Below, piece after piece: positions 3,024 through 17,828 of a stretch of 23,052 bases of DNA. The position numbers were made by a program, and so were the translations under genes. Numbering within the stretch: the stretch's first letter is position 1; each line of letters starts with the position of its first letter. This DNA comes from a virus: positions 1-23,052 of the IMG/VR virus record IMGVR_UViG_3300009154_000294; one strand, 5' to 3'. The notes below the pieces were generated by a model that was not told where the DNA came from, searched no databases, and saw only the letters and a list, made by a program, of their open reading frames with translations.

Positions 3024-4277
3024 CTAATAACTTGCCCACGAGGCCGTGCCTGTCGTCGCATATATAGCCGATAAAGTCGTGGTCGTAAATCCGCATTCAA
3101 AGTAATCACCGCTAGAAAGTGCCACCATAAATCCACCTCCGATAGTTGTGGCGGTTGTCCCGGCGTTCACAAATAACTTCCCTGCTCCGAGATTGTAGAC
3201 AGTAGCCATCTTGCGAGAGGTGTTGGCTGGGACGAGGGTGGCTGAAGTAAGTGACGCAAAACTGCCCGAGGTAATGGCGGTGGAGGAAATTGCTAGGTTG
3301 GCGGTGACCGTGCCACTAATCGCAGGGAGCGAGCCAATGGTGATGCTGTTGCCTACTGTTACTGCGTTGCTGATCGATGCCGTGACAGAGCCAATTTGAG
3401 CCGTACCAGCGGCCAAGGCAGGTAAGGAGCTGACGGTTACCGTTGTGCTCGTAAGAGTGACGGCATGCACAGGTACGGAGGCCAAGCTGACGGGTTGCGT
3501 GGCCTGATAAAATGTACCGCTGACTGGCTGTGTCGCCTGCCAGAACGTGCCAGAGACAGGTACCGTGCCGCTGATAGATGCGGTAACAGAGCCGATTTGG
3601 TTTGTGCCAGCCGCAAGTGCTGGCAAGGACGCCAAAGATGCGGGCTGAGTGGCCTGAAAGAATGTTCCGCTAACTGGTACTGTCCCAGAAATTGATGCGG
3701 TAACAGACCCAATCTGCGCCGTTCCTGCAACTAACGCTGGTAGCGTAGTTAGTGAGACTGGTTGAGTTGCCTGCCAGAACGTACCGCTGACGGGCTGCGT
3801 GGCTTGGAAGAATGTGCCGCTGACCGGTACGGTTCCTGAGATGCTCGCTGTTACTGAGCCAATCTGTGCCGTGCCTGCCCCGATCGTTACAGTGCCCCCG
3901 CCAATCGTCACTACGCCGATTCGGTTTGTGGATGTAAGGCACGTTGCGTTTACTAGAGTTCCATTGAGAGATTGCTGCAAACTTTGTCCATCAAAAGAAA
4001 CTGGCACAGTCCCGTAACTTTGAAATCCTTGCAATATACTTTGTCCAACAGATGCAAAATTAGTATTATTGGTCAGCGATGGGAGTACGCCAACCGTCAC
4101 AGTGCCGATGACAGTCGTGACTGAAGGAGCCTGAATTGAAATTGACGGCATCGTCACCACGTTCACGCTTACCACGTTTGCAACGGTGACTGTGTTGACC
4201 ATCACGCTGGACACAACGGGTGCGCTTAATGTGACTACGGCGGGCGTTTCGGTGATCTGAAGATAAATATCGCTCAT
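3024..4277 (-). CDS. Repeat-rich tail fibre protein
   Basis: This 417-residue protein is almost entirely Ser/Thr/Val/Gly-rich beta sequence. Residues 134-303 hold interleaved repeats: AGTAQIGSVTASIS-type units at 134, 184, 223 and 290, and GTFWQATQPVS-type units at 154, 165, 204, 243 and 254. The last 80 residues (SATLVPANTSRKMATVYN onward) resemble a C-terminal domain widely found on phage tail and decoration proteins, ending near an ALSSGDYFE strand. The repeats suggest an elongated trimeric fibre shaft with a compact tip. The gene starts by ATGA overlap with the BppU-like gene. Receptor binding is inference from position and composition. Confidence 0.72.
   Translation of the reverse strand: MSDIYLQITETPAVVTLSAPVVSSVMVNTVTVANVVSVNVVTMPSISIQAPSVTTVIGTVTVGVLPSLTNNTNFASVGQSILQGFQSYGTVPVSFDGQSLQQSLNGTLVNATCLTSTNRIGVVTIGGGTVTIGAGTAQIGSVTASISGTVPVSGTFFQATQPVSGTFWQATQPVSLTTLPALVAGTAQIGSVTASISGTVPVSGTFFQATQPASLASLPALAAGTNQIGSVTASISGTVPVSGTFWQATQPVSGTFYQATQPVSLASVPVHAVTLTSTTVTVSSLPALAAGTAQIGSVTASISNAVTVGNSITIGSLPAISGTVTANLAISSTAITSGSFASLTSATLVPANTSRKMATVYNLGAGKLFVNAGTTATTIGGGFMVALSSGDYFECGFTTTTLSAIYATTGTASWASY
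3369..3878 (-). repeat. Intragenic fibre-shaft repeats
   Basis: Within the fibre gene, two repeat types alternate: four copies of a roughly 14-residue unit (AGTxQIGSVTASIS, with one copy reading AGTNQ) and five copies of an 11-residue unit (GTFxQATQPxS). The copies are nearly identical in protein but differ at many synonymous positions, so they are old duplications held by selection on the protein rather than fresh tandem copies. Confidence 0.8.
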
Positions 4278-6552: not shown

Positions 6553-8541
6553 TTAGATTGTCGCGGCTACCGCAGCTTGTAATTGAAGGTAAGTGCTAGT
6601 CCCAATGGTAGAAACACCGCTAATTTGCATGGTGACGGCAGTAGATGGCAGGATTGAATTTACAAAGGCCGTCGTGACAGCAAGAACGCCAGAAAAGATT
6701 GTGCGAGATGGGCTGGCATCCAGAGTGACGGCCGGTGCTGTAACATAGCCTGATCCTGCATTTGTTAGCTCAATCGAGTAAATTCCACCATTCAAGACAG
6801 AGGCAGTGGCGACGGCCCCGGATCCCCCGCCTCCACTGAAAGAGATAACAGGCGCTGTGTTGTAGTTCGTGCCTGATGTGACGATGGAAATCGACTGAAT
6901 TATCCCAAGATTGTCTGGCTTTGAAAATCCGACAGTAACTGTCCCCGTGTAATTACTTCCTGCTGATGTTATCTGAACTGCGGAAACAGATCCATCGGTC
7001 GCCAAGGTGGCCGTAGCGGTAGCGCCGGATCCAGCTCCATAAACGGTGACCGTGGGTTCAGTAGTATATCCAATCCCGGCGCACGTAATTGTGATTTTTT
7101 GCAGTGAATTGGTTAGGTTAGGCTCCGGGCAAGTTACGGCAGGCGCCACAGTGTAGCCAGATCCTGAATTTATAACTGAAAAAGAGGCTAGTCCATTTGC
7201 GACAGTCATGTTGATTTCAGCTTTTGCTCCTGTAGTTGGTGCTGCCACAGTGCATGAATAAATCCCGTCCGCATATCCAGTTGGCGTATTTGTAAGGGTG
7301 GCGAATCTTAATCCGTCCGACAGCCGAGCTGGTTGAATTGCGATCCCAGGCGTGGCTGTATATCCGTAGCCAGAGGAAGTCAGGATGACGGAAATGCCGC
7401 CCGACGCTGTTGTGATCACAGTGGCGGCCGCCTGCGATGCCCCGCCTACGGTGCTGTCATAGTAAGCACTGTCGATCGTAATAGAAGGGATAGAATCGTA
7501 ATAACCGGCTCCCGCGCATGTGACGCTAATGCTTTGAACCTTATAAGCTGGCGTGATTGCGTAGCTTTTGCCGTTTGTAATTGAGGATGTAAATCTTGAC
7601 CCATGTGAAACGATAGATGCGGTGACAATAACTCCACCAACTGCACGCATAACACCTGTACATGGCCTTCCATCTCCCGTTTCGTCAGATGGAATAGTAA
7701 AAGGGATATCGACGCCATCAGGGAATCCAGATCCGCCATTATTTACGATTACAGAATTGGCTGAATAGACGTAATCAGGATCGGCGACAAAGGAGAAACT
7801 TTGCACATTATACCCTTGAACAGGATCTAAAACGCTGGGGCTAACTGAAACAAGTTTGCCATTTGAAAATCCGAAATGTTGCGAAACGTTTGCGACGGCA
7901 TAATAAGGGCCATACTCAAAGCCGCCCGTAACACATATTTGATAAACCAATGGAGATCCCCAGAGATTCTGACCATCTGAAATAATTTCAACATAAGAAG
8001 CTCCAACAGTAGAAGCTGCACCAAACCTGTTGCTATAAGTAGGAACTGTGCTTGTGGTAGCTGCTATGTTTTGTCCAAGCGAAACTGCTCTAACTTGCAG
8101 TAACGGATAAATAACCGATGCAACAGACAGCGACAACGTGCAGGCCGTTCCCCTGGTAATCGTTGCCGATGCCAGGGCTGTGATATTGCCGTAAAGCGAC
8201 GCGGTAACTGTGGCGGTAACTCCGCTATATTTAGACGCAGTTCCCGTGGCAGTAATAGCACTGTAAAGAGATGCAGTCGCTGTTCCCGTAATGCCCGCCT
8301 GTGTGGATCTGGTCATAGCTGGAATGCTGACCACGGATCCGGGGATCCCTACGACCATGGAGATGGTCGTTCCAGTTGCGGGAGCGTAGTTTAGCAGATT
8401 TGAGTTGGTGTCCCTTTGCACAAAATCCACGCTAATCGTTTCCGTGTTGCCAGAGTAAAAAACCTGCTGGCTGGCGATTAAAGGATTCAGTGACCCCGCA
8501 AGCAGCTTGTTATTATCCAGGTCAACGTAAAGGGATTTCAT
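6553..8541 (-). CDS. Large repeat-containing tail fibre or baseplate protein
   Basis: The product has 662 residues with a strong SD region (AAGGAG and GAGGAT) before the ATG. Residues 1-70 resemble the small Ig-like attachment domain found in phage upper-baseplate proteins. Residues 86-128 hold three diverged copies of a TATASLY-x-x-I unit. Residues 341-607 carry seven copies of a GxGYxxxPxV-type motif (near 345, 390, 461, 489, 528, 557 and 596), some followed by GSGAxATA. This repeat occurs in phage fibres and secreted bacterial adhesins and is expected to form stacked beta structure. It is the largest gene of the tail-tip block and probably forms a main side fibre or tip appendage. Confidence 0.7.
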   Translation of the reverse strand: MKSLYVDLDNNKLLAGSLNPLIASQQVFYSGNTETISVDFVQRDTNSNLLNYAPATGTTISMVVGIPGSVVSIPAMTRSTQAGITGTATASLYSAITATGTASKYSGVTATVTASLYGNITALASATITRGTACTLSLSVASVIYPLLQVRAVSLGQNIAATTSTVPTYSNRFGAASTVGASYVEIISDGQNLWGSPLVYQICVTGGFEYGPYYAVANVSQHFGFSNGKLVSVSPSVLDPVQGYNVQSFSFVADPDYVYSANSVIVNNGGSGFPDGVDIPFTIPSDETGDGRPCTGVMRAVGGVIVTASIVSHGSRFTSSITNGKSYAITPAYKVQSISVTCAGAGYYDSIPSITIDSAYYDSTVGGASQAAATVITTASGGISVILTSSGYGYTATPGIAIQPARLSDGLRFATLTNTPTGYADGIYSCTVAAPTTGAKAEINMTVANGLASFSVINSGSGYTVAPAVTCPEPNLTNSLQKITITCAGIGYTTEPTVTVYGAGSGATATATLATDGSVSAVQITSAGSNYTGTVTVGFSKPDNLGIIQSISIVTSGTNYNTAPVISFSGGGGSGAVATASVLNGGIYSIELTNAGSGYVTAPAVTLDASPSRTIFSGVLAVTTAFVNSILPSTAVTMQISGVSTIGTSTYLQLQAAVAATI
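6722..7521 (-). repeat. Seven GxGYxxxPxV repeats within the large fibre gene
   Basis: Protein copies start near residues 341, 388, 458, 487, 526, 555 and 594 of the 662-residue protein. Conserved positions are G-x-G/N-Y, then Pro and Val/Ile a few residues later. Two copies are followed by a glycine-rich GSGA segment. The spacing (29 to 70 residues) varies, so this is a diverged protein repeat and not a DNA-level tandem array. Confidence 0.7.
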
Positions 8542-9220: not shown

Positions 9221-10578
9221 TATTGCGCTCCCTGGGTGTTAGACGAGGTTTGAGTCAATTTTGTGATTCCCTTGTCAATGGATTTCAATGTGTTCAGTTG
9301 ATCTTTTTGAATTGTTTCCGTGCCGCCTATCCTTGCAACGCCTCCGCCACCGCCCACTTTTTGCAGGCTATCGGCCAAGATTAGCATCGGCTCAGTTCGA
9401 GTGCTTGCGGGTTTTGTCTTATCTTCGCCGATCATGTTTTTCATCACGTCAGCCTGAACTTTTTTCTGCAATGGGCCGATTTCTGTATCTAATTTAGCCT
9501 GGTCGACCACAAGTTTTGCCCGATCAACTCCTTCAGGCGTTTGATTGATTTTCTTTTGCAAATCAGCGCGTTCCTGCATGAGTGTCTGCAGCTTGTCTTC
9601 GTCAGACATAGCATTCAGCATCTGGCGTCGGTGAATTTCATCCGCTTGGCGATAGAGATCCATTGTTTTCTGCTTTTCATCCTGCTTTTTCTTTTCGGCA
9701 TCGACAGCGGCTTTGGTAGATTCGGCATCCGTTTGCCCGCCAACTGTTTTAGGGCCGCCAGCGCCGAGAGGTTTTGCGCTTCTATTTTCGTCTATGACAT
9801 TATTGATTTGTTTTATCAGATCTTTGGCACCTGAAAAATTACCGGAAATAGCTTCTTTAACAGCAGCTCCTGAAAGAATCAAAACCTCAACAAACTTTTG
9901 ATATGCATTGATGGCTGGGTTAATAATTTGAGCCACACCTCCAAAAACCATCGTAAAAGTGTTTTGAAGTTGTTTTATTTGATCATCCGCCGCCTTGAGA
10001 TTGGCAATCGTTTCGTTCGACCAGACGCCCATGGCCTCGCCCTGTGCGTTGATAGCGGCCGATCCCTGCGAAAGCATAGGCAGCAGATTCGTGGCGCTTT
10101 TGCCCATGAGATCCACAGCAAGGGAAAACTCTTGGCCTTTAATTGACCCGTTGGCCATGGCATCCGCAAAGGCCATCATAATCTGTTCCGGGCTGGCTGA
10201 TGCCAAATCAGCAACGGTTAATCCAATCTTGGCAAAGCTGGCCTGCAACGCCTCGTTACCCGCAACAGCCTCCTGCGCCTTAATGGCAGCCTTGTTCATG
10301 GCGGCCGCCACATCCTCAACAGACGATCCGGACAAGCTGGCTGAGTTGCCAAGTTTCTGCAACGAGCTGCCGGCTATGCCAAACTTTTCAGCCAGGTCGC
10401 CAAGCATCCCGCCTTTTTCAATCGCACCTTTTAAGCCTTCAAATATGGATCCAGCGGCAAAGCCGCCGGCCAGCATGTTCTTGACCTCAGACGAAAAGCT
10501 CTTGACCTCGTTCTGCAAGGCGGAAAGGCCGGTGCTAAACGCGGATTTGTCTAAGCCTACTTTGGCGACTAAAGCCAT
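9220..10578 (-). CDS. Tail tape-measure protein (short)
   Basis: The protein has 452 residues, is strongly helical and Ala-rich, and begins MALVAKVGLDKSAFSTGL, a typical tape-measure N-terminus. A Gly/Ala stretch lies at about 38-56, a hydrophobic segment at about 206-245 and a long charged coiled coil at about 285-380, with a Gly-rich hinge (GGGGG) near residue 415. Tape measures set tail length and are ejected with DNA. At about 1.5 angstroms per residue, 452 residues would predict a tail near 65-70 nm. An SD (AAGGAT) directly precedes the ATG. Position after neck and tail genes supports the call. The family is diverse, so identity rests on architecture and order. Confidence 0.72.
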   Translation of the reverse strand: MALVAKVGLDKSAFSTGLSALQNEVKSFSSEVKNMLAGGFAAGSIFEGLKGAIEKGGMLGDLAEKFGIAGSSLQKLGNSASLSGSSVEDVAAAMNKAAIKAQEAVAGNEALQASFAKIGLTVADLASASPEQIMMAFADAMANGSIKGQEFSLAVDLMGKSATNLLPMLSQGSAAINAQGEAMGVWSNETIANLKAADDQIKQLQNTFTMVFGGVAQIINPAINAYQKFVEVLILSGAAVKEAISGNFSGAKDLIKQINNVIDENRSAKPLGAGGPKTVGGQTDAESTKAAVDAEKKKQDEKQKTMDLYRQADEIHRRQMLNAMSDEDKLQTLMQERADLQKKINQTPEGVDRAKLVVDQAKLDTEIGPLQKKVQADVMKNMIGEDKTKPASTRTEPMLILADSLQKVGGGGGVARIGGTETIQKDQLNTLKSIDKGITKLTQTSSNTQGAQ

Positions 10579-12003: not shown

Positions 12004-12303
12004 TTAAGAAACGCCAGGGTAAGAAGTGCCGCGAATAGAAACTTTTGTAACGTCGCCTAGGGTGCGCTTGCGCTCGACGCTGGTTACTTGAAAGGTCAAA
12101 CCCTTTGCAGTCACGGTTCCTGTCGCGGTGTAACCATCATCAATACCCTCTGCGGAAAGCTCATATTTCGGGTTGAAGGCTTCTTTTACCGGGGGAACGG
12201 TGTTGGCCGTGCCGCTAGGCGTGATCAAAGTATCCACGGATCCGGAGATCCCCACGCTCGTCAGCTCAAGGCCAGAAATTGATACTGTTGTTCCAATAGC
12301 CAT
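12004..12303 (-). CDS. Small beta-rich virion protein, tail-tube candidate
   Basis: The 99-residue protein begins MAIGTTVSISGLELTSVGI and is Thr/Val/Gly-rich with regularly spaced predicted strands, ending VTKVSIRGTSYPGVS. It has a good SD (TTAAGGA, overlapping the upstream stop). Composition and place, between neck genes and the chaperone, make it a candidate for the tail tube or an associated small beta protein. It is much shorter than typical tube proteins (140-250 residues), so the tube may be made of this and the adjacent 93-residue protein, or one may be decorative. No family is recognised. Confidence 0.5.
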   Translation of the reverse strand: MAIGTTVSISGLELTSVGISGSVDTLITPSGTANTVPPVKEAFNPKYELSAEGIDDGYTATGTVTAKGLTFQVTSVERKRTLGDVTKVSIRGTSYPGVS

Positions 12304-12312
12304 AAAATTTCC

Positions 12313-12594
12313 TTAAGGGATTGTCGACCAAGCCATCGTTGTCTGTGTGACGCGAGGCTGATCTGTGTTGCTTTCCTTGTATTCGTAAGCCGTGATGGAT
12401 CCGTTCGTTAGCGTTCCAGTAGCAAGCGTGGGCAAGGTCGTTGTGTAAGTTTCGGTTTTTGCCTCGCCTTGCGCATACTTTTTGAATTGCGCTTTCATAG
12501 AGCCATCTGCGCCCTGAATAAAAGCCCTTTCAAAGCTGGTAGATACCGTTTCCGATAATGTCGTGCTAGCGGGTGTGCCGTAAGTGTAAGCCAT
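12313..12594 (-). CDS. Small beta-rich virion protein paired with its downstream neighbour
   Basis: The product has 93 residues: MAYTYGTPASTTLSETV, then FERAFIQGADGSMKAQFKKYAQG and Thr-rich strands (KTETYTTTLPTLATGTLTNGS). It is followed by the 99-residue protein with a 9-base gap. Both are short, Thr-rich and probably beta-structured, as expected for capsid- or tail-tube-class proteins, but sequence similarity between them is weak by eye. No SD is visible before the ATG. The gene follows a 54-residue membrane protein. Structural role is inferred from neighbours. Confidence 0.48.
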   Translation of the reverse strand: MAYTYGTPASTTLSETVSTSFERAFIQGADGSMKAQFKKYAQGEAKTETYTTTLPTLATGTLTNGSITAYEYKESNTDQPRVTQTTMAWSTIP

Positions 12595-12621
12595 ACGCGG
12601 ATGCGTAGGCTGTCAACCCAA

Positions 12622-12786
12622 CTATTTGCAGAAACGGCCAGCAATAAACGCAAAAAGGCCAGCCAGAAAAATCAACACACAAAAAGGCCAAATCATGGCC
12701 AAAAACAAACCAACTAAGCAAACAATGCCGCCTATAATCTTTATTCTTTTAGGCCATCCACCGTCGATCTGCACCCTTTGCGTCAT
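12622..12786 (-). CDS. 54-residue two-helix membrane protein
   Basis: Between the tail-terminator-like gene and the 93-residue gene, the minus strand encodes 54 residues from the ATG at 12786 to TAG at 12622. Residues 1-16 are basic (MTQRVQIDGGWPKRIK). Residues 17-34 (IIGGIVCLVGLFLAMIWP) and 36-50 (CVLIFLAGLFAFIAG) form two tight hydrophobic helices, and the C-terminus is RFCK. By the positive-inside rule both ends face the cytoplasm. Repeated TGGCCTTTTTG-type bases come from recurring GLF codons. A membrane protein among tail genes is unexpected. It could be a class II-type holin, a superinfection-exclusion protein or an accessory protein. No SD is seen, so expression is less certain. Confidence 0.55.
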   Translation of the reverse strand: MTQRVQIDGGWPKRIKIIGGIVCLVGLFLAMIWPFCVLIFLAGLFAFIAGRFCK

Positions 12787-12818
12787 GCGCTCATGCTATG
12801 GCGCGGCGGCTTAGTTAA

Positions 12819-13238
12819 TCAAGCAGGATTAACCCAAAAGACGGCCGTGACGGTATCGCCCATGGCCTGATCATTCCCGGCGCTCTTTTCCGCTGTGATG
12901 TAAGATCCCAGCAAAGTCATGCCGGACGTGATTGCCGTAACCATCGCATCCTTATTGCTCAATCTGGCCTCCGTCCATTTGAAAAAAGCATTATGGCTGG
13001 CTACTGTGCCCGTCTCTTGCATGGGCGTCAGAACCGTTGCCTCGACAGTGATTTTGCGGGTGGTGCTCTGAATTCCCTGCTCTGCTGGCTCCGCCGATTC
13101 AGCATGGATGATCAGAGCTGGCACCTGTAGATCATCGATCCGATGCCCGGCCTGAATGTTAAGGCCGGTAGGCTTGGACGGGCTGACGGTGGTTAAATAG
13201 CTCGTCAGCGCATTTTCAAAATCTAGGCGTAAGCTCAT
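12819..13238 (-). CDS. Tail-terminator-like protein (lambda gpU position)
   Basis: The protein has 139 residues, beginning MSLRLDFENALTSYLTTV, with a helix followed by strands (ALIIHAESAEP, ITVEATVLTPM) and a C-terminal VTAVFWVNPA. This helix-strand order and length match small tail-terminator proteins of siphoviruses, which cap the tail tube and bind the head connector. It overlaps the upstream head-closure-like gene by 4 bases (ATGA). The family call rests on length, secondary-structure pattern and gene order rather than a clear signature motif. Confidence 0.55.
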   Translation of the reverse strand: MSLRLDFENALTSYLTTVSPSKPTGLNIQAGHRIDDLQVPALIIHAESAEPAEQGIQSTTRKITVEATVLTPMQETGTVASHNAFFKWTEARLSNKDAMVTAITSGMTLLGSYITAEKSAGNDQAMGDTVTAVFWVNPA

Positions 13239-13546
13239 TTTCTTACATCCTCCGGGGTGTTCAGCGTAAGGCTTGTCGTGCCGCTGTCTGTATTGATCCC
13301 GGCCACCCGTTTCCGAATACCGGCCACCGTGATCACGCTCATTAGGCTAGGCGTTGTAACGCCTGCGCTTACATAGACAAATTCGCTGCCTTGTGGGTCG
13401 ATCATGCCGCCGTAGCCAAGCTGACCCGTCTGTTCGTTGGATGCATAAAAACCAGTGACGACTGTGCCGCTAAAAGATGCGGTCACGGGCGCGGCAGCAA
13501 TCGCTTCAGAAAGGCCGCTGGTCATAAGTTGTTCCAGCTCGGTCAC
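13235..13546 (-). CDS. Head-closure or stopper-like protein (lambda gpFII position)
   Basis: The start is GTG at 13546; the stop overlaps the tail-terminator-like gene. The product has 103 residues: a short N-terminal helix (ELEQLMTSGLSEAIAAA), then a beta-rich body with VTGFYAS near 30, FVYVSAGV near 56 and VAGINTDSGTTSLTL near 82-96. Lambda gpFII and related head-tail joining proteins of about 100-120 residues have this helix-plus-barrel form and sit between the portal complex and the tail. Position after the sugar cassette and before the terminator-like gene fits. AGAGAG before the GTG is a weak SD. Confidence 0.52.
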   Translation of the reverse strand: MTELEQLMTSGLSEAIAAAPVTASFSGTVVTGFYASNEQTGQLGYGGMIDPQGSEFVYVSAGVTTPSLMSVITVAGIRKRVAGINTDSGTTSLTLNTPEDVRK

Positions 13547-13556
13547 GTCGTCTCTC

Positions 13557-14111
13557 TTATGTCAAAACTTTCACCCAGCAGTTATCTTGAAAATCAACGC
13601 AGTTAAAAGCCTCTGCCACGGCCTGATCTACCCCTGGCCAACCGCACATGTAGTCGTGCCCGGCGATCACGCCCCCTTTCTTCACCTTGGGCAGCCAAGC
13701 AGCTATATCTGCCTTCACGTTTTCGTAGTCGTGTGCGGCATCGATAAAAACTGCATCCAGACAATCATCTGGGAAAAAGTTGGATCCTTTCAGGCTAGTC
13801 ATTCGTAATGGAACAAGTTGCCGAGAGACTGGCTTTACGTTTGCCAGAAATTCATCGTACAGCGTTTCGTTTTTGATGCATTCATCGTCCGCGTGTTCCT
13901 CGCTACCCAGCCAAGTGTCGACAGCGTAGATCTCGATCCTAGGCGATTTGTTCCAAGCCTCCACCAACAGAAACGCAGTAGATTTCCCTTTCCAGCTTCC
14001 AACTTCCACGATCTTTCCATCCATCGGACAAACGGCCACTAGGCGCCGATAAAGATCTGCAAAGCTGAACCAATCCTCTCCGCCTATGTCTAGGTGTTGC
14101 AGTTTTTCCAT
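13557..14111 (-). CDS. Class I SAM-dependent methyltransferase, Methyltransf_24-like
   Basis: The protein has 184 residues. Motif I is IVEVGSWKGKS at 34-44 (SAM-binding glycines), the acidic ribose-binding residue is likely Asp65 in AVDTWLGS, and the acidic motif IV is VFIDAAHDYE at 121-130. GGVIAGHDY at 146-154 completes the Rossmann core. This short type commonly methylates sugars or other small acceptors next to glycosyltransferases. It starts with a good SD (AAGGA, 7 bases before ATG) inside the 3' end of the second glycosyltransferase (22-base overlap). It probably methylates the glycan made by the two upstream enzymes; the acceptor is unknown. Confidence 0.85.
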   Translation of the reverse strand: MEKLQHLDIGGEDWFSFADLYRRLVAVCPMDGKIVEVGSWKGKSTAFLLVEAWNKSPRIEIYAVDTWLGSEEHADDECIKNETLYDEFLANVKPVSRQLVPLRMTSLKGSNFFPDDCLDAVFIDAAHDYENVKADIAAWLPKVKKGGVIAGHDYMCGWPGVDQAVAEAFNCVDFQDNCWVKVLT

Positions 14112-14764
14112 TTTGTTTCCTTATCCGTTGCCACTCGTGTCGCGTGCTGATGTTCCTTGTGAAATTCAGGCCCAGGACAAAACGTGCCACGTTCCGCGCC
14201 GATGTTTTGGATCCGGCTGACATGCGGGAATAGTTCACCCATTCCCATCCGTTCACGCATCCGCTGAACGGATCCGTCCCAGAAGCTAGGATCCCAAGCT
14301 GGATTCAAATACCTTTCAAATCGATCGCGCCAAGTTGCCCACCCCCATGGCGTGAACCAGTCTCTGAACCCGCAGGCGTCGTTCTGGGCATCTCCGCCGT
14401 GTTGATTGTATGCAGATACAGTCAGCACTTTTGAACCGGCGTTTTGTGCCGCCCACTCAAACCAACGCAAGCAGTCCGGGCTTGGAACAGTGTCGTCCTC
14501 CAAGTGGATGTGATAATCCGATTTTTTAAAACCGTACGTCATCGCGTACCTAATTGCGGATCCGCATCCTAGATGATGATCTGGAATGTGAACGCGAATA
14601 CCGCTGCCTTTTGCAATCTCGGAAAGTTCTGCCGTCTTGTCGGACGGATCCAGAATAGCGGTAATCTCGTACTCGCCCACGCCATCACACCAAGCCAACG
14701 CCTTTAATACCTGGGCAAAGTAATCCGGCCGCTTGTAGCCGGATATGGTCAGCGTTTTATCCAT
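14090..14764 (-). CDS. Glycosyltransferase, GT-A fold, with GWATW motif
   Basis: The start is the ATG at 14764, preceded by AAGG and overlapping the upstream stop by 8 bases; a frame reaching 14791 would add 9 doubtful residues. The 224-residue product begins TLTISGYKRPDYFAQVL, as in nucleotide-sugar-binding GT-A folds. It has LEDD at 88-91 (metal-binding DxD-type site) followed by PSPDCL, and PWGWATWRDRF at 139-149, a motif seen in sugar transferases of bacterial and phage origin. It is expected to move a sugar from a nucleotide donor onto an acceptor. The neighbours, another glycosyltransferase and a methyltransferase, indicate one pathway. Donor and acceptor are not predictable. Confidence 0.82.
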   Translation of the reverse strand: MDKTLTISGYKRPDYFAQVLKALAWCDGVGEYEITAILDPSDKTAELSEIAKGSGIRVHIPDHHLGCGSAIRYAMTYGFKKSDYHIHLEDDTVPSPDCLRWFEWAAQNAGSKVLTVSAYNQHGGDAQNDACGFRDWFTPWGWATWRDRFERYLNPAWDPSFWDGSVQRMRERMGMGELFPHVSRIQNIGAERGTFCPGPEFHKEHQHATRVATDKETKWKNCNT

Positions 14765-16892
14765 TCGCCTTGAGCAAAGCGTAGGCCGCAAGGTTTCCGC
14801 CTGTGCCCTTGTTATTTTGCAAGGCGTCAGCGCCTAGCCCTTCCGGCCTAATCTTGAGGGAGTTTCCACGATTTAAATCTGGCGTGTTGCAGACAAGAGT
14901 GGCAGTTCCAGCTTTCCGCAGTTCCGTGCTCATCATGTAATCGTCAGCAAGGAACCTGGCACGATCCAGGGGAGACAGTCCGACAAATTGACTGGCTGGG
15001 ACGGCTGGCCATAAATCGGCTTTTGGCATGTCAGAACGCCGACACATCACCCCGCCAAATCCTTCCAGAATTTCGGCGTGGCCACCGTGATCCGGGGCGA
15101 TGGCGTAGCCGCTGGATCCCGTCATAAAAAATCCGCAGACACCTAGCGCCGTTTTGGGTCTTGTATCTAGTTCTTCGGCGAGGGTCTGCAAAAGGCGTGG
15201 GCTGTAGAGGATATCGTCGTCTAGCCAGCAAATCTTGTCGTCAGGATCCCCGCCCACTTCCAGCGGGCCGATAAACTTTGTGGCCGGGCCGTAGTCCTTA
15301 GTTCGGTGAATTTGCAATTTACCAGCATCGGCAAGCGCCTGTAGCTCTTTTGGAATATCCCCAAAACGCTCCCCCGTACGTGCCAACTTCTCAGGCACAG
15401 AGAGAATGATCTGATCTGCCGGACGTGATTGATTCAGCAGGCTTTGAATCGTGGGCATGATTTTACCGATCCTAGTCGGCGTGGTGGTAAGGCCGACGAT
15501 GACGTTGCCTGCTCGATCGATCGGATCTGGCAAGCGTTCTGCTCCCGCAGGGATTGCGCCATTTTCAATCAGATCCAGATCCCATCGCAAGCCGGGCATC
15601 TGACCTTCTTTTGCTGTCACAGTTAAAAGAATGTCTCCGGCGGCTGCGCTGATGGCCTCATCCGCAGATTGAACAATACAATGCCGATCAGCCTGTTTGT
15701 TGCCGCGTTGCGTTACTAGCATGTGCTGGATGGCGTTCGGATTGTCCGCCGTGTCCGTATAAACTGCTACAGATCGCATGCACTGCTCTGGATCTCCGAT
15801 ATGAATGACGGTGATTTTTCCCCAGGCTGCTCGGAATCCTTGTTTCATCAAAGCGTCTGCCTCTGCGTTTTGTTTATTCGCCCGCAAACATTGAGCCATG
15901 AGATGTCGCGGTAGGTGCTTGTACCAACGATTTTCCTGATTCCAATCCGCTGTATGCGGCATCGAATCCACTGTTTTTAAAATGTGAAATGCAGTGGTGA
16001 AGTCGTCGTGATCCATTCTGTCAGCAGCTAGTAATCCGTACGCCTCACGACGTAGCGGGCAAAGAGTGATCGCTTTTCCAATATGTTCTAATCGTTTTGC
16101 ACGTTCCAACAGCATCATAGATGCCTGCGTGTGGAGCTGATATCGCTCGGCTGGGCCGAGATCCGAATGTTCTAACGCCAACAGGCAAGGCCCGATGGCT
16201 TGCTGATATTCGTTCTTAAGAAAATGTTCTTGCGCCAAGTAGTACCACTCCATGCCGATTCCATTGATCCGGCTGGCGATGATCCGCTTGTTGCGATCTG
16301 CGCTGGATATCTTTGGCCCGTTTGGCGCATGCAGGATTTTCAGGTGTTCTGCCACGCCGATCTTTGTGTCTTTTGCGGGCGTGACTCTTTCGTGGATCTG
16401 CCGTTCCCAATGAGCTGGTAATCTGCCGTCGTCCATCCTGCGGAATATCCGTTCGCGCTTGTTGTTGCGCATGCCGGAGTTTTGGACGTCGTAGATGGTA
16501 ACTAAGATATCCCACTCCGTCTTGCCTGCCTCCCGATCCATGATGGCTCGCCGATGAGCCTCTGCCTGGCCTGGCTCAAAGATGTCGTCGCAATCTGCCC
16601 AGATCACATACTTGCCAGTGGCTAGGCTAAAAGCCTTGTTCCTGGCGGCTGCAAAATTATCGATATGAGGCCAATCCTTAAATTCAGGGCTATTGTGGTA
16701 CTCCTCGCACACTAAAGCCTCGCCAGCGGCTTCCAGAGCACATTGGCGCACACTGTGCGCATCGTTTGCGCCTACTGCCGGCACGACTACGACCTGATCC
16801 CACAGGCCACGGGATGACTCGATCAGTCTACGCAAAATCGCCCCCTCGCCGGGGCCGGCGATAAGGGCGATTGAGACGAGTGGGGGTTTCAT
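14757..16892 (-). CDS. Bifunctional glycosyltransferase with two GT-A domains and a TPR-like linker
   Basis: The 711-residue protein has three parts. Residues 1-200 form a family-2-type domain: VSIALIAGPGEG start, then FAAARNKAF and a metal-binding WADCDD at 98-103. Residues about 215-355 are helical hairpins resembling TPR repeats (WYYLAQEHFLKNEYQQAIGPC). Residues about 463-690 are a second GT-A domain: GLTTTPTRIGKIMPT, DYGPATKF at 533-540 and WLDDDI at 556-561. TPR-linked glycosyltransferases often act on proteins. This makes a two-step sugar addition on a virion or host protein plausible. It has no clear SD and follows the hairpin after the capsid gene. It is not needed by known lambda-like morphogenesis, so it is an accessory gene. 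Confidence 0.85.
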   Translation of the reverse strand: MKPPLVSIALIAGPGEGAILRRLIESSRGLWDQVVVVPAVGANDAHSVRQCALEAAGEALVCEEYHNSPEFKDWPHIDNFAAARNKAFSLATGKYVIWADCDDIFEPGQAEAHRRAIMDREAGKTEWDILVTIYDVQNSGMRNNKRERIFRRMDDGRLPAHWERQIHERVTPAKDTKIGVAEHLKILHAPNGPKISSADRNKRIIASRINGIGMEWYYLAQEHFLKNEYQQAIGPCLLALEHSDLGPAERYQLHTQASMMLLERAKRLEHIGKAITLCPLRREAYGLLAADRMDHDDFTTAFHILKTVDSMPHTADWNQENRWYKHLPRHLMAQCLRANKQNAEADALMKQGFRAAWGKITVIHIGDPEQCMRSVAVYTDTADNPNAIQHMLVTQRGNKQADRHCIVQSADEAISAAAGDILLTVTAKEGQMPGLRWDLDLIENGAIPAGAERLPDPIDRAGNVIVGLTTTPTRIGKIMPTIQSLLNQSRPADQIILSVPEKLARTGERFGDIPKELQALADAGKLQIHRTKDYGPATKFIGPLEVGGDPDDKICWLDDDILYSPRLLQTLAEELDTRPKTALGVCGFFMTGSSGYAIAPDHGGHAEILEGFGGVMCRRSDMPKADLWPAVPASQFVGLSPLDRARFLADDYMMSTELRKAGTATLVCNTPDLNRGNSLKIRPEGLGADALQNNKGTGGNLAAYALLKANG

Positions 16893-16901
16893 CTTTTAGG
16901 T

Positions 16902-16938
16902 GGTGGCCGGCCGCACCCCCCGATGCGACCGGCCCACC
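16902..16938 (-). terminator. GC-rich hairpin after the major capsid gene
   Basis: On the minus strand, 14 bases past the capsid stop, an arm GGTGGGCCGGTCGCA (16938-16924) pairs with TGCGGCCGGCCACC (16915-16902), with one bulged G, one G-U pair and an 8-base loop. No U-run follows; the next bases are ACCUAAAAG and then the glycosyltransferase start. It may be a partial terminator or an mRNA-stabilising 3' end that boosts capsid over downstream genes. Confidence 0.55.
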
Positions 16939-16952
16939 GATAATCTTAGTCT

Positions 16953-17828
16953 TTAGACCAAGCGAACTAGGCTGGATCCCGATCCAACTCCCGTTCCAAA
17001 CAGAACGATGTAGCTGCGGAAGGTCTGCCCGAGATTCGGGTTGAACCATTCGCGCATCTGCATGCTGAGTCCGGATTCGGGTTCGGTCACGTTCTCGACC
17101 AAGCCAGGGAAGTTCTCAGGAACTTCAGGCAAGCGAGCCGCCACCAAGAGCGCTTCCTGTTGGGCTGCGAAGCCTTTGGAAACTGCGCTAGGGAGCGCCG
17201 TGTAGTTGAACACGTTGATGTTGTTCACCAGACCGATGCGACCCGTGCCGATCTTGTCTGCGTTCAACTGAGCATTCGCCACGATGGACGAATCGTTCAA
17301 CAGGCTGGCGTAGTTGTCCGGGGACACCACGGCAAACCGATTCACACTAGGCACCTTGCTGTTGTCGAGGGTGTAGCCCAAGCTGGTCACACCGCGATAG
17401 GTCAACGCACCGGCCGCCACTGTCAGCGTGCTGGTAAAGTTGCCGCTGGTGATGTTGGCGAGCACGGAATCAACCATGCTTTTTCCAACCGCGTAGGCGG
17501 CGGAAGCAGCAAAACGCTCGATCAAATTGATCTGCGAGCTGGCTTTTTCGTCGTCGCGGATGGCGATGGTCGAGTGGATCAGGCTGGACAAGCTGATGGT
17601 CTTGTCGGTCTGAGTCCGATCGTTGGCTACGTAGCCGTTGGTGGTGTCGTAAGCGGAGGCGGTGCCAACGCTGACGAGGTGGGTGGTGATGACGTCACCT
17701 TTGCGTGCGGGAACGTCCGAAAAATCGGTGACGCCCTGCGTTAAGAAAGGAAAGCGATCGACCAGAATGCTGAGCGCGCGCTGGGCGATGGCTTTTCCAT
17801 TCGAGACTGATCCGAGTGTATTTGCCAT
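16953..17828 (-). CDS. Major capsid protein, HK97 fold
   Basis: The product has 291 residues. It begins MANTLGSVSNGKAIAQRALSI, has a beta stretch with TQTDKTISLSSLIHSTIAI near 73-91, a spine-like helix (SSQINLIERFAASAAYAVGKSMVDSVLANI near 97-126), and RFAVVSPDNYASLL near 163-176, a phrase typical of the P22-like branch of HK97-fold coats. It lies directly downstream of portal and protease genes and is followed by a hairpin. The ATG has AAAGGA 11 bases upstream. The gene is one of the more GC-rich and regular in codon use, consistent with high expression. I cannot name a close relative. Confidence 0.85.
   Translation of the reverse strand: MANTLGSVSNGKAIAQRALSILVDRFPFLTQGVTDFSDVPARKGDVITTHLVSVGTASAYDTTNGYVANDRTQTDKTISLSSLIHSTIAIRDDEKASSQINLIERFAASAAYAVGKSMVDSVLANITSGNFTSTLTVAAGALTYRGVTSLGYTLDNSKVPSVNRFAVVSPDNYASLLNDSSIVANAQLNADKIGTGRIGLVNNINVFNYTALPSAVSKGFAAQQEALLVAARLPEVPENFPGLVENVTEPESGLSMQMREWFNPNLGQTFRSYIVLFGTGVGSGSSLVRLV

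What the first reader, a model, noticed from the sequence alone, without database searches (positions are those of the whole stretch)
13557..16892. Glycosyltransferase, glycosyltransferase, methyltransferase cassette inside the head-tail operon
Three enzymes with recognisable catalytic motifs interrupt the normal order from capsid to neck genes. The first is a fusion of two GT-A domains with a TPR-like linker. Together they could build and O-methylate a glycan on a capsid, tail or host surface protein. Expression with late genes argues for modifying the virion itself rather than phage DNA.
Basis: partly seen in the sequence, partly recalled or inferred. Interest (0 to 1): 0.62.

Follow-up and report, generated by a model that had tools for sequence, protein, structure and literature searches.

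The report
Phage sugar-coating gene cassette beside capsid
A group of uncultured, mostly temperate phages carries, right next to its capsid gene, one constant sugar-attaching enzyme followed by an exchangeable set of sugar-building enzymes, which most likely coats the virus particle with sugar chains that differ from phage to phage.

Summary
The three genes are real and intact at the stated coordinates. GT1 (711 aa) has an N-terminal GT-A domain related to the flagellin glycosyltransferase GmaR and the peptide glycosyltransferases SunS/ThuS, then TPRs, then a KfiA-like second GT-A domain. GT2 (really 224 aa, 14090-14764) resembles the GT13 enzymes POMGNT1/GnT-I. MT is a Methyltransf_24 enzyme. 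Catalytic motifs are invariant in relatives; dN/dS is 0.05-0.12.

The main result is comparative. In 51 other viral loci GT1 follows the capsid gene; a sister clade (80 loci listed) has a homologue one gene further on. The N-GT+TPR half is shared between clades, the second GT is not, and the genes after it differ within each clade: 105 slots hold at least 13 enzyme sets (methyltransferases, GT34/GT7/GT47/GT77-like enzymes, epimerases, TPP and radical-SAM enzymes). Variability rises outward from the presumed protein attachment.

Best reading: cytosolic glycosylation of a virion protein with swappable outer sugars. Acceptor, sugars and host are not shown. Phage virion glycosylation is known (Che8), so this is a new variant of a known kind. 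DNA-base glucosylation and host-surface conversion are disfavoured.

The parts
14757..16892 (-). GT1: bifunctional glycosyltransferase, 711 aa (N-terminal GT-A, TPR region, C-terminal GT-A)
16269..16892 (-). GT1 N-terminal GT-A domain (about residues 1-208), GmaR/SunS-like; invariant acidic motif D100/D102/D103 at 16584-16595
   Evidence: GmaR 8.7e-9 over residues 4-210; SunS/ThuS best Foldseek matches; invariance
15828..16259 (-). GT1 TPR region (about residues 212-355)
   Evidence: TPR matches over 215-326; helix pairs in the model
14760..15512 (-). GT1 C-terminal GT-A domain (about residues 461-711), KfiA-like; DDD 558-560 at 15213-15221
   Evidence: KfiA Z 16.8, 2.6 A over 180 residues; invariance
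14090..14764 (-). GT2: GT13 (POMGNT1/GnT-I)-like glycosyltransferase, 224 aa
   Evidence: Pfam GNT-I; POMGNT1 2e-7 with profile; start by relatives
13557..14111 (-). MT: Methyltransf_24 class I SAM methyltransferase, 184 aa
   Evidence: Pfam 1.3e-18, 68.2 bits against cut-off 26.3; motifs invariant
16953..17828 (-). major capsid protein, neighbour and favoured but unproven acceptor
   Evidence: PHROG major head protein 5.9e-19
13235..13546 (-). h103: small head/neck gene that closes the exchangeable slot
   Evidence: counterpart of the 99-aa gene of the sister clade, hhalign 86%, E 5e-6

Best explanation
The cassette makes a glycan on one or more of the phage's own structural proteins in the host cytoplasm. 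The N-terminal domain of GT1, guided by its TPR region, attaches the first sugar to the protein (inferred from homology to GmaR and SunS). The second GT-A domain of GT1 adds the next sugar, GT2 extends or branches it, and MT modifies or caps it by methylation (order inferred). In related phages the protein-attaching half of GT1 is constant and the outer enzymes are exchanged as modules, so particles built the same way would carry different outer sugars. Shown: gene order, homologies, invariant catalytic motifs, purifying selection, module exchange. Inferred: the acceptor (capsid protein by position, but neck or tail proteins possible), the sugars, the reaction order and the benefit (shielding or altered particle surface).
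For: GT1 N-domain matches GmaR, which glycosylates flagellin (PMC9638930); SunS/ThuS are the best structural matches. Catalytic motifs invariant. Median dN/dS 0.115, 0.074 and 0.052 for GT1, GT2 and MT. GT1 sits next to the capsid gene in all relatives with both genes, including all 53 loci fetched with other queries. A sister clade keeps a homologue on the other side of the h103 counterpart. N-GT+TPR part shared (residues 3-443, E 3.7e-46) while the C-terminal GT differs. At least 13 enzyme sets in 105 slots, all with sugar, methyl or sugar-precursor type enzymes where a family is recognisable; sets are not tied to capsid type. No membrane-like segment in GT1, GT2 or MT.
Against: No acceptor is shown. 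Pairwise distances of GT1 correlate with portal (0.85) and h103 (0.80) more than with the capsid protein (0.64), so the capsid protein is not singled out. Several tail proteins are richer in Ser/Thr than the capsid protein. The structure prediction of GT2 failed. Sugar O-methylation by MT is inferred from its family and company only.
Confidence: 0.66

Rival explanations
1. The enzymes remodel a host surface glycan or envelope precursor during infection or lysogeny (receptor masking, superinfection exclusion or serotype conversion).
For: Most relatives are temperate: integrase in 15 of 19 records. The C-domain of GT1 resembles the capsular polysaccharide enzyme KfiA. Swapping outer-sugar modules is also typical of surface-polysaccharide loci (general knowledge).
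Against: No membrane segment or flippase in the cassette; late-operon position between capsid and neck genes in two clades; initiating domain of the protein-modifying type.
Confidence: 0.17
2. The cassette glycosylates virion proteins, but the acceptor is a tail, neck or fibre protein and not the capsid protein. This is the main alternative acceptor within the best explanation and is scored inside it.
For: Tail proteins at 3024-4277, 6553-8541, 12004-12303 and 12313-12594 have 25-31% Ser+Thr against 19% for the capsid protein. GT1 distances follow h103 and portal more than the capsid protein. Tail tubes of mycobacteriophages are glycosylated too (PMC12619734).
Against: The cassette lies directly beside the capsid gene in clade 1 and within one gene of it in clade 2; Ser/Thr content alone is weak evidence.
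Confidence: 0.25
3. The transferases modify phage DNA bases.
For: Phage-encoded glycosyltransferases are often DNA-modifying; a PHROG named DNA methyltransferase matches MT (3.4e-22), but only at one part of a 599-position profile.
Against: No thymidylate-synthase/dNMP-hydroxymethylase family gene in 19 of 19 relatives of 33-36 kb (completeness of the records is not known); late-operon position; swapped modules are glycan and sugar-precursor enzymes; MT is Methyltransf_24.
Confidence: 0.04

Closest known systems
Virion glycosylation of cluster F1 mycobacteriophages (Che8, Rita; Freeman et al. 2023, read through PMC11256854 and PMC12619734)
   Same: Phage-encoded glycosyltransferases and glycans on capsid and tail subunits.
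   Different: There, in the related phage Maravista, the genes lie near the 3' end of the genome, not at the capsid gene; no GmaR/SunS-like bifunctional enzyme with exchangeable sets is described in the passages read; GT1 has no match in 50,697 phage records.
GmaR (flagellin GlcNAc transferase of Listeria) and SunS/ThuS (peptide S-glycosyltransferases)
   Same: N-terminal GT2-type GT-A domain followed by TPR/helical repeats.
   Different: GT1 carries a second GT-A domain in place of the GmaR antirepressor part, and lies in a phage head operon.
Chlorovirus PBCV-1 A064R/A061L (outer capsid glycan; PMC9614988)
   Same: Two glycosyltransferases plus methyltransferase that build the outer part of a capsid glycan with soluble virus-encoded enzymes; glycan variants without change of the capsid polypeptide.
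   Different: Unrelated virus of algae, N-glycan, different GT families, A064R is one three-domain protein, genes expressed early.
Verrucomicrobia phage P8625
   Same: Only isolate in the phage collection whose capsid protein matches (27%); similar late-gene order and a hairpin after the capsid gene.
   Different: Has no glycosyltransferase cassette there.

Membership tests
GT2-plus-TPR protein/peptide glycosyltransferases (GmaR, SunS/ThuS type) | N-terminal GT-A domain homologous to the family | tested here: met
   GmaR 8.7e-9 by profile; SunS/ThuS best Foldseek matches, 1.9e-13
GT2-plus-TPR protein/peptide glycosyltransferases (GmaR, SunS/ThuS type) | conserved acidic DxD-type motif | tested here: met
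   D100, D102, D103 invariant in 26 sequences
GT2-plus-TPR protein/peptide glycosyltransferases (GmaR, SunS/ThuS type) | TPR/helical repeats after the GT domain | tested here: met
   TPR matches over 215-326; helices in the model
GT2-plus-TPR protein/peptide glycosyltransferases (GmaR, SunS/ThuS type) | transfers sugar to a protein or peptide | not testable with these tools
   needs an enzyme assay
GT13 (GnT-I/POMGNT1) | sequence homology with an EDD metal-binding motif | tested here: met
   GNT-I 32.5 bits against cut-off 25.4; POMGNT1 2e-7; EDD 89-91 invariant
GT13 (GnT-I/POMGNT1) | GT-A fold of the family | tested here: inconclusive
   AlphaFold model of mean pLDDT 46.7, not searched
Methyltransf_24 SAM-dependent methyltransferases | full-length domain match over the curated cut-off | tested here: met
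   68.2 bits against 26.3, profile 1-105 of 105
Phage virion glycosylation systems (Che8 type) | glycan covalently attached to virion proteins | not testable with these tools
   needs mass spectrometry of virions
DNA-base glucosylation of phages | hydroxymethylated base made by a thymidylate-synthase-family enzyme | tested here: not met
   PF00303 absent in 19 of 19 relatives of 33-36 kb, controls positive; records may be incomplete
gtrABC-type serotype conversion | membrane flippase and membrane-bound glucosyltransferase in the cassette | tested here: not met
   no membrane-like segment in GT1, GT2 or MT; highest 19-residue hydropathy of the 23 slot ORF families is 1.84, in a TPP-enzyme half

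The most novel reading that the evidence does not exclude
A protein glycosylation system of phages in which variability follows the order of glycan assembly: a constant protein-attaching enzyme, a second sugar transferase that differs between clades, and outer-sugar modules (including sugar epimerases, GT47/GT7 enzymes, TPP-dependent and radical-SAM enzymes that may make unusual sugars) exchanged between otherwise similar phages. It would be a phage counterpart of O-antigen or chlorovirus capsid-glycan polymorphism.
Probability: 0.45. Interest if true: 0.75.

Novelty: new variant of a known kind. Interest (0 to 1): 0.6.

Why it matters
Glycosylated phage particles are known from few isolates. 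If this reading holds, two clades of small temperate phages (over 130 loci listed here) devote roughly 3 to 5 kb of a genome of at least 33-36 kb to decorating their own particles, and they swap the outer sugars. That makes it testable why a phage would vary its surface glycan (escape from particle-binding factors, adsorption traps or grazers). It also supplies a family of soluble candidate protein glycosyltransferases together with natural sets of different outer-sugar enzymes.

Tried and rejected
Host assignment: GT1 and the TerL profile found no relative among 84,980 bacterial and archaeal species genomes; the only isolate hint is a 27% capsid match to Verrucomicrobia phage P8625, too weak to name a host. 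GT1 has no match in 50,697 phage records. GT2 fold: model too poor to search. The 'DNA methyltransferase' label from PHROGs was rejected because the match covers only a generic SAM-binding part of a long profile. GT1-capsid co-evolution: distance correlations do not single out the capsid protein. Apparent internal stops in GT1 of L018, L021, L040 and L050 were alignments read past the true stop; the genes are intact. The post-capsid hairpin was first taken as part of the cassette; it also follows the capsid gene in the sister clade and in P8625, so it belongs to the capsid 3' end, and no Rfam family matches it. Some slot patterns are effects of ORF picking; 'at least 13 gene sets' is my count after merging these. 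The full text of Freeman et al. 2023 was not held and is cited only through papers that cite it.

Full report
WHAT IS THERE. The window is a 23,052-base viral record whose late genes run on the minus strand: TerS, TerL (GpA type), portal, protease, major capsid protein, then the three enzymes of the finding, then neck and tail genes. The coordinates 13557-16892 are exact. The true start of GT2 is the ATG at 14764, the start shared with relatives. The enzyme genes overlap each other by 8 and 22 bp; 10 bp separate MT from h103; 60 bp lie between the capsid stop and GT1.

GT1. The profile of 26 sequences matches GmaR, the Listeria flagellin glycosyltransferase, at 8.7e-9 over residues 4-210, TPR proteins over 215-326, and heparosan synthase/KfiA in the C-terminal part. 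The AlphaFold model (mean pLDDT 81, pTM 0.47) gives SunS and ThuS, peptide S-glycosyltransferases, as best Foldseek matches, and KfiA as a clean match to residues 461-684 (Z 16.8, 2.6 A, 180 residues). In GmaR the GT domain transfers GlcNAc to flagellin and the TPR domain is proposed to recognise flagellin (PMC9638930). Both acidic motifs are invariant.

GT2 AND MT. GT2 matches GT13 enzymes: Pfam GNT-I and, with the profile of 18 sequences, POMGNT1 at 2e-7 and GnT-I at 2e-6; its fold could not be predicted. MT is a full-length Methyltransf_24; the best solved relative is a methyltransferase-domain protein, 6g7d, at 4e-4 over a short stretch. Sugar O-methylation is inferred from family and company, not shown.

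SELECTION. Median dN/dS over pairs with dS between 0.05 and 1.5 is 0.115 for GT1, 0.074 for GT2 and 0.052 for MT, against 0.260 for the capsid protein and 0.050 for TerL. All three enzymes are under strong purifying selection.

RELATIVES AND MODULARITY. A scan of viral contigs with GT1 gave 51 distinct loci, and TerL relatives added more at about 60% identity. GT1 follows the capsid gene wherever both are present. Of the loci fetched by capsid, TerL or GT2 queries that reach 700 bases past the capsid gene, all 53 (some from the same contigs) carry GT1 or its homologue downstream (the two exceptions listed there are the window itself, read on the other strand, and phage P8625). Between GT1 and h103 the content varies: GT2+Methyltransf_24, a single FkbM methyltransferase, a GT34-like enzyme, GT2+an unrelated gene with a methyltransferase look but no Pfam match, GT2+GT7 with or without a fused sugar epimerase, and a set with an epimerase in L023. 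Each capsid type occurs with more than one set, and the FkbM and GT2+Methyltransf_24 sets recur across capsid types.

SISTER CLADE. L157, with 80% TerL identity, led to a second clade (101 matching stretches, 80 loci listed). There a 560-aa GT1 homologue lies after the capsid gene and a 99-aa gene that is the counterpart of h103 (hhalign 86%, E 5e-6), so the cassette is on the other side of that gene. GT1 and its homologue align over residues 3-443 (hhalign 100%, E 3.7e-46), but the C-terminal GT domains do not align. The slot again varies: TPP-enzyme halves + radical SAM, Methyltransf_23 types, FkbM + nucleotide-sugar transferase + GT47, a GT47-radical-SAM fusion, DUF5672 + Methyltransf_24. 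Two recurrent slot genes (254 and 222 aa) have no Pfam match. The Methyltransf_24 of the window is found there too, at 69-76% identity, evidence of exchange between clades. Over both clades, 105 slots with both borders hold at least 13 gene sets by my count.

HOW IT MOST LIKELY WORKS. GT1, GT2 and MT have no membrane-like segment, the initiating domain is of a protein-modifying type, and the genes are in the late operon next to the capsid gene. The simplest mechanism is stepwise glycosylation of a newly made structural protein in the cytoplasm: N-GT attaches, C-GT extends, GT2 extends or branches, MT caps. Conservation falls in that order across the clades, as expected if the protein-proximal sugar is fixed and the outer sugars are diversified. 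The capsid protein is the favoured acceptor by position only; distance correlations do not single it out, and several tail proteins are richer in Ser/Thr.

RIVALS. DNA-base glucosylation: no thymidylate-synthase-family gene in 19 relatives of 33-36 kb. Host-surface conversion: 15 of 19 carry an integrase, so lifestyle does not exclude it, but operon position and lack of membrane partners speak against it. Tail or fibre glycosylation is a serious alternative acceptor within the same general idea; its confidence is counted inside the best explanation.

KNOWN OR NEW. Phage virion glycosylation is known: Che8 and Rita carry glycans on the capsid (PMC11256854), and the tail tube of mycobacteriophages is glycosylated too (PMC12619734). 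Chlorovirus A064R is a GT-GT-methyltransferase that builds the outer capsid glycan, and its mutants are antigenic variants (PMC9614988). GT1 has no match in 50,697 phage records. A GmaR/SunS-like bifunctional initiator at the capsid border with exchangeable sets was not found in the papers searched, which cover open-licence papers only. I therefore rate it a new variant of a known kind.

Noticed in passing
window 16899-16938 (-); same place in clade-1 relatives; L157 15022-15082; L165 (P8625) 9252-9310: A strong hairpin (-33.5 kcal/mol, z -4.7) directly after the capsid stop. In clade 1 the stem changes in compensating pairs (8 of 13 pairs changed on both sides, 98.4% of cells paired) while the tip ATCGGGGGGT is constant. 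The sister clade and P8625 have different hairpins at the same place. No Rfam match. It may lower transcription or stabilise the capsid message.
   Followed up: partly
L157 17066-20044 and most of L166-L245: The commonest sister-clade slot set: an unassigned 254-aa protein, two split TPP-enzyme halves (transketolase/E1 type) and a radical SAM enzyme, inside a phage head-tail operon. Possibly a pathway to an unusual sugar.
   Followed up: partly
L026 10792-12336; L213 2442-4292: Fusions within slot sets: a GT7-type galactosyltransferase joined to a sugar epimerase, and an exostosin-type GT47 joined to a radical SAM domain.
   Followed up: no
15 of 19 related records of 33-36 kb: A tyrosine integrase is present, so the group is mostly temperate, yet TerL and GT1 found no prophage in 84,980 species genomes; the host is unknown.
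   Followed up: partly
window 12595-12818: A 224-base gap in an otherwise tight tail operon; by eye it can encode a small hydrophobic protein of about 55 residues.
   Followed up: no
window 3024-4277 and 6553-8541: Two repetitive, Ser/Thr-rich (30% and 25.5%) tail or fibre proteins without Pfam match; possible alternative glycan acceptors.
   Followed up: no
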